Positions 7,735 to 30,189 of a stretch of 36,104 nt of DNA are shown in pieces. This DNA comes from an uncultured Bacteroidia bacterium (lineage in GTDB: Bacteria > Bacteroidota > Bacteroidia > Bacteroidales > UBA932): positions 1 through 36,104 of the forward strand of contig CACWOH010000018.1 in NCBI GenBank assembly GCA_902762435.1. Direction: 5' to 3'. Numbering within the stretch: position 1 is the first letter of the stretch; each line of letters begins with the position of its first letter. Below the pieces are notes generated by a model. The model was not told where the DNA came from. It searched no databases and saw nothing but the letters and a program-made list of their open reading frames with translations. A program made the translations under genes and the position numbers.

Positions 7735-9291
7735 TTATTCAGCAGCCTCGTGGCTCACGTAGAACGCGTTCTTCATCTGGGCGTTGCCGTTGTAGGAGGT
7801 CTTCGGACCCACCACGGTGATGGTGTCGCCTTCCTTCACGCCCAGCTTGGTCAGCAGATCCTGGCCGGACTGTCCGGTGAGGGTCGGGACCAGGCCGTAG
7901 ACATAGATCTTGTCCGTGTCGTCCTCGATGTAGAAGTTGCCGTACTTGTTGTACTTGCTCGCGTCGTCCTTGTCCATCACGATGCCGCTCACCTTGCCGG
8001 TGATCATATACAGGGCGGAACCGTCCTCCAGGGCGTTGAACGCCGCGCAGGTGGCCGCAGTGACGGAGGTGTGCTCCACGTAGTAGCCGTTCACCATCTG
8101 GGGATTCTCCTTGTAGGAGCCCTTCGGGCCCACCACGGTGAGCAGGTCGCCCGCCTTGATGCCCTTGGCCGTGATCACGTCCTGGCCGGACGCGCCGCCC
8201 GCCTCGGGAAGGAGGCCGTACACATACACCTTGCCGGAATCGTCGTTGAGGTAGAAGTTGCCGTACTTGTTGGGCTTGGTGGGATCGTCCTTGTCCATCA
8301 CGATGCCGGTCACGATACCCTTGAGCCGGTACAGGGCGTTGCCGTCCGGCAGGGCGTTGAAGTCGCCGGCGGCGATTTCAACGATGGAGCCGGTCTGGCT
8401 GACGGCCTGCTGGCAGCTGTATTCCTTCTTGCCGTCGGTGGTCTTGAAGGTGATGACGGTCTCGCGGTCGCCACCGGCGTTCGGGGCGGCGGTGAACGTC
8501 ACGACGTTGCCGGCCAGGGCGGAGATGGAGAGCCAGCTCTTGGCGTCCTCGGGGATCTCGACATACACGCCGTTGCCCTTGTTGGCGAGGGTGACGGTGA
8601 AGTCGCCGCCTTCGATGGGCAGGACCGCTTCTTCGGGATCGATGGATTCGACCTTGATGAGGGACTTGTTGATCTTGACCACGGTCACGTTCACGAGTTC
8701 GACCGTGCCGTTGTAGGTGGTCTTCGGGCCCTCGACGGTGACCTCGTCACCGACCTCGAGGCCGAGGCTCAGGAAGTTCTTCTCATTGCCCTTGGCGTCC
8801 AGCGTACCGTAGATGTACACCTCGCCGGTGTCGTCCACGAGATACCAGTTGCCGTAGGTCGTGTTGGCGATGCTCTTGACGGTACCGGTCACGCGGTAGG
8901 TCTTGCTGTCCGGACCGGCGATGATCTCGGCGCAGGTCGCGTTGGAGACGGTGGCGATGCCCTGGATCACGTTGATGCGCTGCACGGCGCCGTTGCACTC
9001 GAGCAGGAGCTCGGCGTTGCGGCCGGCGGCGGCTTCGGCGGAGAAGGTGACGTTGGTCGAGCCGGCAGGGCCGGAGAGCGGGCTGACGGTCAGCCACTCG
9101 GGGGCTCCGCTGATGGACCAGGCGTAGTTCGACAGGACACCGATGGTGGCGGAACCGCCTTCCGCCGGGACGGAGACGTAGGAGGAGGACACCGAGACCT
9201 CATCCAGATAATGGGACCCGACTTCTTTCTGGCAGCCGGCCAGGATGGCCAGGGCTGCGGTCAGGGAAGCGAAAATATACTTGGCTTTCAT
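7735..9291 (-). CDS. BACON/OB-fold repeat lipoprotein
   Basis: This 518-residue surface-type lipoprotein (signal MKAKYIFASLTAALAILAGC, Cys 20) has five domains in the order BACON (about 30-110), OB-like (113-207), BACON-like (214-301), OB-like (304-407) and OB-like (410-515). The OB-like units share YGNWYLVDDTG/YGNFYLNDDSG, a VYVYG strand, and GD-(x)-VTVEGPK or TVVGPK. The last two are nearly identical, also at DNA level, which points to a recent duplication. BACON domains are thought to bind carbohydrate or mucin; ligands of the OB-like units are unknown. The frame extends to 9348, but the start at 9291 gives the signal peptide. It follows the TonB receptor by 14 nt, so the two probably form a receptor-lipoprotein pair. 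Confidence 0.85.
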   Translation of the reverse strand: MKAKYIFASLTAALAILAGCQKEVGSHYLDEVSVSSSYVSVPAEGGSATIGVLSNYAWSISGAPEWLTVSPLSGPAGSTNVTFSAEAAAGRNAELLLECNGAVQRINVIQGIATVSNATCAEIIAGPDSKTYRVTGTVKSIANTTYGNWYLVDDTGEVYIYGTLDAKGNEKNFLSLGLEVGDEVTVEGPKTTYNGTVELVNVTVVKINKSLIKVESIDPEEAVLPIEGGDFTVTLANKGNGVYVEIPEDAKSWLSISALAGNVVTFTAAPNAGGDRETVITFKTTDGKKEYSCQQAVSQTGSIVEIAAGDFNALPDGNALYRLKGIVTGIVMDKDDPTKPNKYGNFYLNDDSGKVYVYGLLPEAGGASGQDVITAKGIKAGDLLTVVGPKGSYKENPQMVNGYYVEHTSVTAATCAAFNALEDGSALYMITGKVSGIVMDKDDASKYNKYGNFYIEDDTDKIYVYGLVPTLTGQSGQDLLTKLGVKEGDTITVVGPKTSYNGNAQMKNAFYVSHEAAE

Positions 9292-16202: not shown

Positions 16203-18839
<2,637 letters not shown>

Positions 18840-26940: not shown

Positions 26941-29184
26941 ATGAAAAACATCCTTCCCCTACTTTTCCTGGCCGTCCTGTCCGCCGCCTGCACGCGGCAG
27001 GAACTTGCCGTCACGCCCCGTTCCGGCGAAAACCACCTCCGGCCGCAGTCCGTGCTGCCCGGCCGGGCGGCCGTCCTGCTTACCGAAGAGGCCGCCGAAG
27101 ACTTCTCGGCCGACGACTTCGTCCGGCAGGCGTCCGGACTGGGGGTCGTCTCGATGGAGCGGGTGTTCCCCGACGCCGGGGAGTTCGAGGCGCGCCACCG
27201 CGCGGCCGGCCTGCACCGCTGGTACCGCATCCGCTACGACGAAGGCGTGAGCGTCACGAAGGCGCAGGAGGGGCTCGCCTCCCTGCCGGGCGTGCAGACC
27301 GTGGACTTTCCGCGGCGCAAGGTGCGTCGCGCCCTCTTCAACGACCCCTACTACGCCTACCAGTGGCATTTCTACAATGACGGTTCCCTGGGCTCCCGCT
27401 TCAAGAAAGGCAGCGACATCAACGTCGAGCCCGTCTGGAAAGAATATACCGCCGGTCGGAGCGAGGTAATCGTGGCCGTCGTCGACGGCGGCATCGACCT
27501 GGAGCACGAAGACCTGAAAGGCGTCGTCCTGCCGGGCGGGAAGGGCGGCAGCCGCAATTTCGTCGCGGGGTACGGCTCCGACGACATCGTCCCCGACGAG
27601 CACGGCACGCACGTGGGAGGCACGATCGGCGCCATCAACAACAACGGCATCGGCCTGTGCGGCATCGCCGGCGGCAAGGACGGCCGTGGCGGCGTCCGCC
27701 TGATGTCCTGCATCATCTTCGCGGACAGCGACGAAGAATCCGACGGCGAAGAAGACGCCCGGGCGCTCGTGTGGGCGGCGGACAACGGCGCGGTCATCGC
27801 CAACAACAGCTGGGGCTACGAGGCCGAGTCGGAACGGGAGGCGGCGCAGTTCGCGAAGGACTTCCTCAATTACGACTCCCCCACCAAGGACGCCATCGAC
27901 TATTTCATCGAACACGCGGGCACCGACGCCTCCGGCAAGCAGACCGGCCCCATGAAGGGCGGCCTGGTCGTTTTCGCGGCGGGCAACGAGGGCTGGAGCC
28001 ACGACGCCCCCGGCGAATACGAACCCATCGTGGCCGTAGGGGCCTTCGGTCCGGACGGCAGGATGGCCGAATTCTCCAATTACGGGCCCTGGGTGGACAT
28101 CCTCGCCCCGGGCGGATCGGATTCCGACGAAGGGGAGGAGTGGATTGCCAGCACCGTTCCCGACGACGGTTACGCCTACCTGCCCGGCACCTCGATGGCC
28201 TGCCCGCACGTATCGGGCGTGGCCGCCCTGCTGGTCAGCCAGTTCGGCGGGCCGGGCTTCACCTGCGACGACCTGAAGGAGATGCTGCTGGGCGGCGCCG
28301 TCCGGGACGCCATCAAACTGCCTTCCGGACGCACGGTCGGCGGCGGAAAACTGGACGCCTACGGATCGTTCACCTACAAGTCCGGCGGCGGGGACAAGCC
28401 CGACATCCGCTTCACCACCGACTACACCGGCGACTACCGCTTCAAGTCGCACGAAAGCGTCACCCTGGACTGGCAGATCCTCGGCAACGAACGGGCGCGG
28501 CTGCAGGTCAGCGTGGACAGCGACTGCCCGGGCGTCACGGCCGAGTGCAGCACCTCCCGGGTGCAGATCCGCATCAACGCCCTCCAGGCCGATCCGGGCG
28601 AGTACCGCGCCACGATCCGCGTCGGCGACAGCGCCAGCCAGCCCGTCGATTTCACGATCCTGGAAAACCACGCCCCGCGGCTCGTCGTGCCGTTCGGCAA
28701 CGAGATCCTCAACGCGGCCTCCGACATCCCGCTCAGCGTCGCCCTCGCCTCCCATTTCGAGGACCCGGACGACGAGATCCTGGGCTACAACGTCACGCTG
28801 TCGGACAAGTCCGTCGCCATGCAGTCCTTCTCCGGCAGCACGCTCGTCCTGTCGCCCCTCGGCTACGGCCTCACGGAAGTGACCGTCACCGCCTTCGACG
28901 CGCGCCGCGCCGAGGCGTCCGACACTTTCCTGCTCCTGGGGCGCAACGCCTACCAGGACCTGGACATCTATCCCAACCCGGTGAAGGACTACCTCTATGT
29001 ACGTCCCGGCACGGACAAGGAGCTGGACATCAGCCTGTACAACCTGTCCGGCGCACTGGTTTACCGGAAAACGGATGCCGCCGCCGGCCCGTTCTACCCA
29101 CTGTCCGTCGACCTGCGGGAACAACCCGCTGGCACCTATACCCTCTTCGTCGGGGACAGGCGCTATACCATAGCAAAACAGTAA
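26941..29184 (+). CDS. S8 serine protease with lipobox and T9SS type A sorting domain (paralogue)
   Basis: This 747-residue protein has the same plan as the protease at 16203-18839: signal with Cys 17 (LSAAC), a prodomain-like region with VFPDAGEFEARHRAAGLHRWY, catalytic D182 (VVDGGID), H221 (EHGTHVGGT), S418 (GTSMACPHVSG) and oxyanion N349. Ig-like regions follow, then a T9SS domain from about residue 678 (IYPNPVKDYLYV). It lacks the fibronectin-like insertion of the paralogue, hence it is about 130 residues shorter. It is coupled to the S41 gene and ends 3 nt from the convergent atpG stop. The pair flanks the SusCD system, suggesting duplication with divergence in specificity. Confidence 0.92.
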   Translation: MKNILPLLFLAVLSAACTRQELAVTPRSGENHLRPQSVLPGRAAVLLTEEAAEDFSADDFVRQASGLGVVSMERVFPDAGEFEARHRAAGLHRWYRIRYDEGVSVTKAQEGLASLPGVQTVDFPRRKVRRALFNDPYYAYQWHFYNDGSLGSRFKKGSDINVEPVWKEYTAGRSEVIVAVVDGGIDLEHEDLKGVVLPGGKGGSRNFVAGYGSDDIVPDEHGTHVGGTIGAINNNGIGLCGIAGGKDGRGGVRLMSCIIFADSDEESDGEEDARALVWAADNGAVIANNSWGYEAESEREAAQFAKDFLNYDSPTKDAIDYFIEHAGTDASGKQTGPMKGGLVVFAAGNEGWSHDAPGEYEPIVAVGAFGPDGRMAEFSNYGPWVDILAPGGSDSDEGEEWIASTVPDDGYAYLPGTSMACPHVSGVAALLVSQFGGPGFTCDDLKEMLLGGAVRDAIKLPSGRTVGGGKLDAYGSFTYKSGGGDKPDIRFTTDYTGDYRFKSHESVTLDWQILGNERARLQVSVDSDCPGVTAECSTSRVQIRINALQADPGEYRATIRVGDSASQPVDFTILENHAPRLVVPFGNEILNAASDIPLSVALASHFEDPDDEILGYNVTLSDKSVAMQSFSGSTLVLSPLGYGLTEVTVTAFDARRAEASDTFLLLGRNAYQDLDIYPNPVKDYLYVRPGTDKELDISLYNLSGALVYRKTDAAAGPFYPLSVDLREQPAGTYTLFVGDRRYTIAKQ

Positions 29185-29187
29185 ATC

Positions 29188-30189
29188 TTATTGTGATGCG
29201 CCGCCGAGGAGATCCAGGATCTCGGCGGTAATCTTCTGCTGGCGGCCCTTGTTGTACTCGAGGGTCAGTTCGCCCAGCAGTTCCTCGGCATTGTCGCTCG
29301 CGGTCTGCATCGCGACGGTCCGGGCGGCGTGCTCCGCCGCGGCGGAATCCAGCACGGCGGCGTGGAACTTCAGCATCATCACCTGCGGCAGCAGGGTGGC
29401 GAGCAGCGTTTCCGCATCCGGTTCGATGATGTAGTCCTCCTTGAAAGGAGCTTCGGCGGAGGCGTGCGCGGGCGTTGTGGAGGGCGGAGCCGAAATTGGT
29501 TTTTCGGCAAACTTGTCCGAAAAATAATTTCGGTCCGCCCGCGAGGAAGACTCCGCCATACCGAACGGCAGATAAACCTCCGCCACCGGCTCCTGCCGGG
29601 CGGAGGAGATGAAACGGTTGTACACCAGCACCACGCGGGAGAGTTCCCCGGCCTGGAAACGCTCCGCCAGGGAACGGGCCAGGGCGGTTGACTTCTCGTA
29701 GGACGGATGGCCGATAATGTCGTTGAAGTCGGCGGGATTCGTATAACCGGCACGGCGCAGGGCCTCCGCCATCTTGCGGCCGACCGGAATGACCTCCACC
29801 TCGCCCTCGCAGGCTCGGATGGTCTCCAGCGCCTTCCGCACGACATTCGCATTGAACGCCCCGCACAGAGACGAATTCGAAGCAATCGCTATAATGGCAG
29901 TCTTTCCAGGGACGGGGGAGTCGTGCGTAGGCGTCGTGGAGGGTGGAGCGGAAATTGGTTTTTCGGCAAACTTGTCCGAAAAAAAATTTCCGTCCGCCCG
30001 CGGGGAAAGCGCCGCCGGCCCGACCGCTGACAGAATTTCGGCCAGCGTCCGTTCATACGGCCGCATCCCCTCGATGGCCTTCTGCGCCTTGCGCAACTTC
30101 GCCGAAGCCACGAGCTTCATCGCCGAAGTGATCTTCAGCGTACTGCGGACCGACCCGATCCTGTCCTTGGTTTCCCGAAGCGTCGCCAC
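29188..30189 (-). CDS. atpG: ATP synthase F1 gamma subunit with two repeat-derived insertions
   Basis: Gamma is the central rotor stalk of F1. The conserved coiled-coil ends are present: [20 protein letters not shown] at the start and [20 protein letters not shown] at the end, plus [13 protein letters not shown] in the middle. The product has 333 residues, against about 290 in relatives. The excess is two insertions, at residues about 62-95 and 215-245, both containing [17 protein letters not shown] and both encoded by copies of one 86-nt palindromic element. They fall where relatives vary in sequence and length. The start is GTG with a strong Shine-Dalgarno (GGGAGG, 5-nt spacing), unusual for this phylum. 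It is the last gene of the operon, 12 nt after atpA. Confidence 0.96.
29463..29548 (-). repeat. Palindromic repeat element B, copy II in atpG
   Basis: This 86-nt unit differs from the copy at 29922-30007 at only 8 positions. Its core (29483-29539) folds into one long interrupted hairpin. The outer arms are GGCGGA/TCCGCC, the middle arms CCGAAATT/AATTTCGG and the inner arms TTTTTCGG/CCGAAAAA, around a 9-nt loop. Read on the minus strand it encodes [20 protein letters not shown] and more, in frame with atpG. Confidence 0.9.
29922..30007 (-). repeat. Palindromic repeat element B, copy I in atpG
   Basis: This is the sister of the unit at 29463-29548, in the same orientation and reading frame, 459 bp away. 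The middle arms read CGGAAATT/AATTTCCG, so one C-G pair of the other copy has become G-C: both arms changed together. The outer arm has one C-to-T change (GGTGGA), leaving a G-T wobble. Confidence 0.9.

What the first reader, a model, noticed from the sequence alone, without database searches (positions are those of the whole stretch)
29463..30007. Two in-frame copies of one palindromic element inside the ATP synthase gamma gene
Seen: two 86-nt units 459 bp apart in atpG, 78 of 86 bases identical, same orientation and frame, both giving [17 protein letters not shown]. Gamma is about 40 residues longer than in relatives, and the insertions fall at two separate positions where relatives vary. 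Known: Rickettsia palindromic elements insert in frame into genes in this manner. Inference: this is a comparable protein-inserting repeat family in Bacteroidetes, tolerated even in a rotating essential machine.
Basis: partly seen in the sequence, partly recalled or inferred. Interest (0 to 1): 0.85.

Follow-up and report, generated by a model that had tools for sequence, protein, structure and literature searches.

The report
Mobile hairpin lodged twice in AtpG
A short hairpin-forming DNA repeat has inserted itself, in reading frame, into loops of several important proteins of gut bacteria, including twice in the rotor of the ATP synthase, which shows how selfish DNA can add new stretches to vital proteins.

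Summary
They belong to a dispersed family, here called A: 51 distinct copies collected, in 17 of 151 genus genomes; in a sample of 393 genomes of the order only the own genome matched. At least 23 of the 51 lie inside genes for unrelated proteins (AtpG, DapF, TrpC, MetH, ABC-F, RfbD, PrmC, MBOAT, a radical-SAM protein); 18 of 19 sense copies share one frame. Empty sites exist. The stem covaries, so the nucleic-acid fold is kept rather than the peptide. The AtpG model puts the inserts in disordered loops.

Most copies sit inside a site-specific inverted repeat of their own flanks, without direct target duplication; in trpC the insert is flipped between sister species with re-matched arms, as replication template switching would do. 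And the same AtpG loops are hairpin-rich in many relatives carrying other repeats.

It works like Rickettsia palindromic elements; homology to them is untested. What moves it is unproven.

The parts
29188..30189 (-). atpG, ATP synthase gamma subunit, 333 aa, GTG start, host of both copies
   Evidence: ORF; PF00231 E=1.2e-80
29463..29548 (-). element A, copy 1 (second loop of gamma), subtype A1 tail with a GGAGTCTTCC motif at its head as in subtype A2
   Evidence: 86-nt unit, 78 of 86 identical to copy 2; fold z -6.3; genome-wide relatives
29922..30007 (-). element A, copy 2 (first loop of gamma), subtype A1
   Evidence: no clear flank arms at this copy (longest exact inverted match 4 nt)
29551..29557 (-). 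upstream flank arm of copy 1 (GGCGGAG in gene sense)
   Evidence: inverted match with the downstream arm, 7 nt
29455..29461 (-). downstream flank arm of copy 1 (CTCCGCC in gene sense)
   Evidence: inverted match with the upstream arm, 7 nt
29478..29542 (-). core hairpin of copy 1, 25 pairs in the structure used for counting
29937..30001 (-). core hairpin of copy 2

Best explanation
The two units are copies of a small dispersed hairpin element (family A, about 86-93 nt) that has spread through one genus of uncultured gut Bacteroidales. Shown: it is repeated at unrelated loci, in frame inside unrelated proteins, with empty sites in relatives and a covarying stem. Inferred: when a copy lands in a gene it survives if it falls in a surface loop or linker and in the frame that gives the least hydrophobic, disordered peptide; elsewhere it is purged. 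After landing, the hairpin is remodelled during replication by template switching, which extends or re-matches the stem into the host flank (site-specific inverted arms) and can flip the insert. The hairpin is later deleted and leaves short tails (STTPTH, STTPAH) in the protein, so repeated rounds build linkers. How the element moves is inferred only weakly: an ssDNA route with an HuH (Y1) transposase is the likeliest candidate.
For: Dispersed: own genome has 5 full copies in 4 places plus partial ones; 17 of 151 genus genomes at E<=1e-3, with at most 6 candidates scored per genome; 7, 9 and 11 matches in G097, G058 and G119 when all candidates were scored at E<=0.01. In genes: 23 of 51 copies; hosts named by Pfam or, for the atpG loci, by tblastn, and L159 by its resemblance to the MBOAT gene in L165. 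Frame: 18 of 19 sense copies, or 8 of 9 sense sites (P=0.00097 against 1/3, post hoc), although all three sense frames are stop-free in 47, 50 and 48 of 51 copies. Empty sites: trpC of G008 and G148 and outgroups; dapF of most readable relatives; several atpG loci. Stem: 7 pairs and 25 cells with changes on both sides, 93.1% of cells paired, 0 of 500 shuffles reach any of these. Disorder: pLDDT 50-59 in both insert regions against above 90 for 215 residues. Arms: 34 A1 copies, own-flank score 278 against 120 +- 11 (largest of 20,000 permutations 169); longest exact inverted match 7.9 against 4.6 nt, 0 of 5000; direct match 3.7 against 3.6 nt, 823 of 5000. Flip with re-matched arms in trpC of G097 and G150. 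Tails: the five best tail matches in the own genome are all in genes; 2 and 3 serial tails in two ABC-F linkers.
Against: No movement was observed; many copies at one site in different species may be one inherited insertion, so 51 copies are not 51 events. About 7 of 34 A1 copies, window copy 2 among them, have no arms above control level. Two copies sit in the loop of a dispersed REP-like palindrome, so some arms pre-existed rather than being made after landing. The count of standard pair types in the stem did not exceed shuffles (13 against 13.0, 321 of 500). Y1 transposase genes are not significantly linked to carriers (11 of 17 against 62 of 134, Fisher P=0.20), and G119, with 11 matches, had no Y1 hit even at E<=1 (83% complete). 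Translation of the insert was not shown experimentally.
Confidence: 0.8

Rival explanations
1. The copies inserted into hairpins that were already there: the element targets loops of existing palindromes, and the inverted arms are simply the old target.
For: In L182 (G080) and L174 (G097) the arms match a REP-like palindrome ATTCGCCGG-N-CCGGCGAAT that is dispersed without A (27 places in G080, 9 in G108, 2 in G119, 2 in G058, 1 in G097). Insertion of REPs within palindromes is described for other families (PMC3733652, section 7).
Against: For the commonest arm (GGCTTGCC) no uninterrupted palindrome with a spacing up to 25 nt exists in five genomes whose copies have it (G080, G097, G119, G058, G150), though 2, 1 and 1 exist in G000, G108 and G065. 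In trpC the arms include host codons and the empty relatives show no palindrome; arms differ between sister species yet match within each.
Confidence: 0.35
2. Old internal duplication within atpG, kept because the peptide has a function in gamma.
For: Both copies lie in one gene and read the same peptide.
Against: The unit lies in eight other kinds of gene and outside genes; relatives lack it or hold other repeats in the same loops; the stem changes by compensatory substitutions that alter the peptide; the regions are predicted disordered.
Confidence: 0.03
3. The element is a regulatory RNA or terminator hairpin that only happens to lie in genes.
For: 28 of the 51 copies were not shown to be in genes, many lie between genes, and the fold is conserved.
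Against: No Rfam family matches (one sub-threshold hit elsewhere); the frame preference and continuation of the reading frame through the copies are not expected of a regulatory hairpin.
Confidence: 0.08
4. The mRNA insert is bypassed or removed rather than translated, as for the byp inserts of yeast mitochondria (recalled).
For: A stable hairpin inside essential genes would be a suitable bypass signal.
Against: The coding copies keep the frame without stops, and 18 of 19 sense copies use one frame, which bypassing would not require; the shorter copy in L186 lost 6 nt.
Confidence: 0.04

Closest known systems
Rickettsia palindromic elements (RPE)
   Same: Palindromic repeats inserted in frame in unrelated, probably working proteins, with a recurring peptide (passages of PMC10969869 and PMC3733652)
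   Different: Other phylum and sequence (homology not tested); about 86-93 nt against about 150 bp; few copies per genome; site-specific inverted flanks and flipped inserts were not mentioned in the passages seen
Intragenic REP sequences, GTAG and CGTC families
   Same: Hairpins inside genes; some REP families lie within palindromes; CGTC REPs are reported in Bacteroidetes (PMC3733652, passages and section 7)
   Different: Longer stem with bulges, no constant GTAG or CGTC tag at an end of the aligned copies, low copy number
Template-switch (quasipalindrome) mutation
   Same: Arm homogenisation and spacer inversion between short inverted repeats in coding DNA (abstract of PMC8604942) and creation of stems (abstract of PMC8794818)
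   Different: Here the spacer is a mobile hairpin and the arms are the host flanks of each insertion
MITEs
   Same: Short, non-autonomous, dispersed, palindromic
   Different: No direct target duplication and no parental transposon found

Membership tests
Rickettsia palindromic elements | palindromic repeat dispersed in the genome | tested here: met
Rickettsia palindromic elements | inserted in frame in unrelated protein genes, giving a recurring peptide | tested here: met
   nine kinds of host gene, 18 of 19 sense copies in one frame
Rickettsia palindromic elements | sequence homology to a described RPE family | not tested
   no RPE sequence was fetched; the order-wide sample lacks Rickettsiales
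REP (GTAG or CGTC type) | constant GTAG or CGTC tetranucleotide at one end | tested here: not met
   ends of 34 A1 copies read TTCC..GCAC with variable neighbours
REP / REPtron | cognate HuH tyrosine transposase (RAYT) gene flanked by the repeat | tested here: inconclusive
   Y1 genes occur in carriers at weak scores (7 of 8 at E<=1, 6 of 8 over the Pfam cut-off); one A copy about 0.3 kb upstream of one in G080 (L302); no significant link
MITE | direct target-site duplication | tested here: not met
   direct flank match 3.7 against 3.6 nt, 823 of 5000 permutations
MITE | parental transposon with the same ends | not tested
   no systematic search for a long element with these ends

The most novel reading that the evidence does not exclude
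Palindrome accretion: hairpin elements land in protein loops, template switching then draws the host flank into the palindrome and flips the insert, and deletion leaves short tails, so that loops and linkers of essential proteins grow by repeated rounds of hairpin insertion by several unrelated families. The loops of AtpG, TrpC and DapF in these bacteria would be records of this process.
Probability: 0.4. Interest if true: 0.85.

Novelty: new variant of a known kind. Interest (0 to 1): 0.7.

Why it matters
In-frame palindromic elements have been discussed mainly for obligate intracellular bacteria such as Rickettsia (passages seen). Here one occurs in a gut lineage, inside conserved housekeeping enzymes, with empty, filled, flipped and decayed states of the same site in related species. 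This makes it possible to follow, in sequence, how selfish hairpins enter proteins, which frames survive, and how template switching reshapes them. In seven literature searches of an open-access library I saw no description of this family; subscription papers and preprints are not covered.

Tried and rejected
Internal duplication: rejected, the unit is dispersed. Phage, plasmid or viral origin: no match among phages or plasmids and no exact match of a 33-nt core in IMG/VR. Known RNA family: none at E<=1 in the element; one sub-threshold msiK hit beside it. Y1 transposase as the mover: first search at E<=1e-5 gave 73 of 151 genomes, without G000, G058, G080, G108, G119, G150; a looser search found weak hits in 7 of 8 carriers; no significant link, so left open. 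Pre-existing palindromes as the only source of arms: partly rejected. Arms weaker in coding copies: not significant (17 against 17, P=0.11). First loop statistics by regular expression read only 44 of 81 loci and missed the window (69 loops, mean z -2.67, 41 below -2, control 4); replaced by an alignment-based version. Rows dropped: 3 of 51 copies (L187, L191, L195) left out of the stem alignment; 4 of 51 copies had no definable ends and 13 are subtype A2, so arm permutations used 34; 1 of 23 trpC and 7 of 30 fetched dapF loci could not be read by motif.

Full report
Check of the observation. Both fold into a strong hairpin. Chance is excluded. Gamma is 333 aa; the median of 81 atpG loci is 310.

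A dispersed family. BLAST of one copy against the own genome gave 14 matches at E<=1, of which five are long copies at E<=1e-16: the two in atpG, one in an ABC-F gene, two outside the reading frames I could assign. In the genus, 17 of 151 genomes matched at E<=1e-3, with at most 6 candidates scored per genome. With all candidates scored, G097, G058 and G119 had 7, 9 and 11 matches at E<=0.01. In 393 genomes of the order, including the own one, 2 others of the genus and 3 of the family, only the own genome matched at E<=1e-6 (only 2 candidates scored per genome). From 40 fetched stretches, the atpG loci and the own loci I collected 51 distinct copies at E<=1e-8. They are places, not independent events: L172 and L173 are one insertion in two species, and other shared sites may be too. 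Two subtypes differ at the ends: A1 (34 copies with definable ends) and A2 (13); 4 were unassigned.

In genes. At least 23 of the 51 copies lie in genes: 7 in atpG, 3 in dapF, 2 in metH, 2 in ABC-F, 2 in rfbD (one protein with two copies), 2 in an MBOAT gene, 1 in prmC in sense; and 2 in trpC, 1 in prmC and 1 in a radical-SAM gene in antisense (Pfam; atpG loci by tblastn; L159 by likeness to L165, since it had no Pfam hit). The other 28 were not shown to be in genes and were not each examined. Of the 19 sense copies 18 use the frame seen in atpG; the exception, near the start of rfbD, enters in another frame and returns to the usual one through a 1-nt shorter loop. By site it is 8 of 9 (P=0.00097 against one third, chosen after seeing the data). 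Stops do not explain this, since all three sense frames are open in 47, 50 and 48 of 51 copies. The used frame has the fewest hydrophobic residues (3 and 4 of 28).

Empty and filled sites. TrpC was found in 23 of 151 genomes and the loop could be read in 22. Six hold A or its remains (G119 and G150 full and antisense; G108 with A2 sense and an antisense head; G000, G097 and G058 shortened), G080 holds another repeat (ILRSAQDD), and 15 hold no recognised A; G008 and G148 are close relatives with a short loop, and G065 has a short insert that may be an A2 tail. In dapF, 23 of 30 fetched loci could be read: A in G058 and G108, a tail in G000, another repeat (HSERSEES) in G028, the rest without A; G065 has A according to L180. 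In AtpG the two loops vary from 11 to 81 and from 7 to 60 aa. Of loops of at least 20 aa, 52 of 86 have a folding z below -2 (mean -3.08), against 2 of 86 equally long stretches of the conserved domain (mean 0.0). By peptide pattern 20 of 81 loci could be assigned to seven repeat types, A being one with 5; most of these labels are mine and were not checked as DNA families.

Fold rather than peptide. In 42 distinct core sequences 7 of 25 pairs show changes on both sides, 25 cells in all, and 93.1% of cells are paired; none of 500 shuffles reached these values, and sliding the partners broke the pairing. The number of pair types did not exceed shuffles. These changes alter the encoded peptide, so the structure is what is kept. 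In the AlphaFold model of gamma the inserts (about residues 61-95 and 208-250) have pLDDT of 50-59 and no regular structure apart from a three-residue turn, while 215 of 333 residues are at 90 or more; solved gamma chains align on either side of both.

Inverted flanks. Left and right flanks of a copy match each other as inverted repeats. Over all 51 copies the median local score is 8.5 for own pairs and 6.0 for mixed pairs (6.7% of mixed pairs reach 8.5). For 34 A1 copies the sum is 278 against 120 +- 11, and no permutation of 20,000 exceeded 169. The longest exact inverted match averages 7.9 nt against 4.6 (0 of 5000), while direct matches do not exceed chance (3.7 against 3.6, 823 of 5000), so there is no sign of a direct target duplication. 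Arms run to 16 nt (ABC-F, L003). About 7 of 34 copies have no arms above control level; window copy 2 is one of them, and window copy 1 has 7 nt.

Origin of the arms. Two copies (L182, L174) sit in the loop of a dispersed REP-like palindrome (27 places in G080), so nesting in older hairpins occurs. For the arm GGCTTGCC no free palindrome with spacing up to 25 nt was found in G080, G097, G119, G058 or G150, whose copies have it; a few exist in G000, G108 and G065. In trpC the left arm overlaps the conserved Ala-Pro-Leu codons. G097 and G150 are sisters (96.7% identical over 425 residues of TrpC and DapF; branch support in that tree is low). In G150 the full insert is antisense between GGCCCCGTT and AACGGGGCC; in G097 the shortened insert is sense between GCCCCGCTTC and GAAGCGGGGC. 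Inverted spacer plus re-matched arms is what template switching does according to the abstract of PMC8604942; PMC8794818 (abstract) describes stems made this way. Two separate insertions at one site remain possible.

Decay. Tail motifs without a hairpin lie in trpC, dapF and a glycosyltransferase of the own genome; the last has the same tail and arms GGCGAACCTT/AAGGTTCGCC but another core. Two ABC-F linkers carry 2 and 3 tails in a row. This fits repeated insertion and loss.

What moves it. The carriers encode weakly scoring Y1 (HuH) proteins of about 290-390 aa, with NHVH and in some YIHRNP, signatures of the TnpA-Y1 family as described in passages of PMC6006769. One A copy lies about 0.3 kb upstream of such a gene (L302). 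Carriers do not have strong Y1 hits significantly more often (11 of 17 against 62 of 134, P=0.20). An HuH route is therefore a proposal.

Comparison with the known. It works like Rickettsia palindromic elements (passages of PMC10969869 and PMC3733652), but membership was not tested by sequence. It lacks the constant tag of GTAG and CGTC REPs and the target duplication of MITEs. Insertion of REPs within palindromes has been noted before (PMC3733652, section 7). New here, as far as seven searches of an open-access library show, are the host lineage, the site-specific inverted flanks with flipping, and the shared landing loops. I rate it a new variant of a known kind.

Noticed in passing
L006 1383-2435 (own genome, C4, dapF): The own DapF carries, besides the A tail [12 protein letters not shown], a second insert EILRQAQDDG that looks like another widespread repeat type.
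   Followed up: partly
L007 around 1501 (own genome, C4:47905, glycosyltransferase): An element with the same tail as A (CTCCACAACGCCCGCGCAC) and flank arms GGCGAACCTT/AAGGTTCGCC but a different core palindrome, in frame.
   Followed up: partly
L297, sense positions about 1272 and 2613: A Y1-like gene of the own genome is flanked on both sides by the same hairpin stretch CGTTATGTACGAAAACGGCCTTTTTCGTGA, as in a REPtron.
   Followed up: no
L302 (G080:C26), A copy at 1803 and Y1-like gene from 2109: One A copy lies about 0.3 kb upstream of a Y1-like gene, next to a tandem repeat CCAGGCTTGCCATCC.
   Followed up: no
G080, 27 places; G108, 9 places: A REP-like palindrome ATTCGCCGG-N5/6-CCGGCGAAT is dispersed in some carriers and absent in the own genome.
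   Followed up: partly
window 17423-18592 and 27140-28291: Several long inverted stretches, 73-77% alike, suggest two related genes on opposite strands; the second is an ORF of 747 aa with subtilase-like motifs (recalled).
   Followed up: no
window 7756-8361: Direct repeats of 115-149 nt spaced 321 nt, probably repeated domains of one protein.
   Followed up: no
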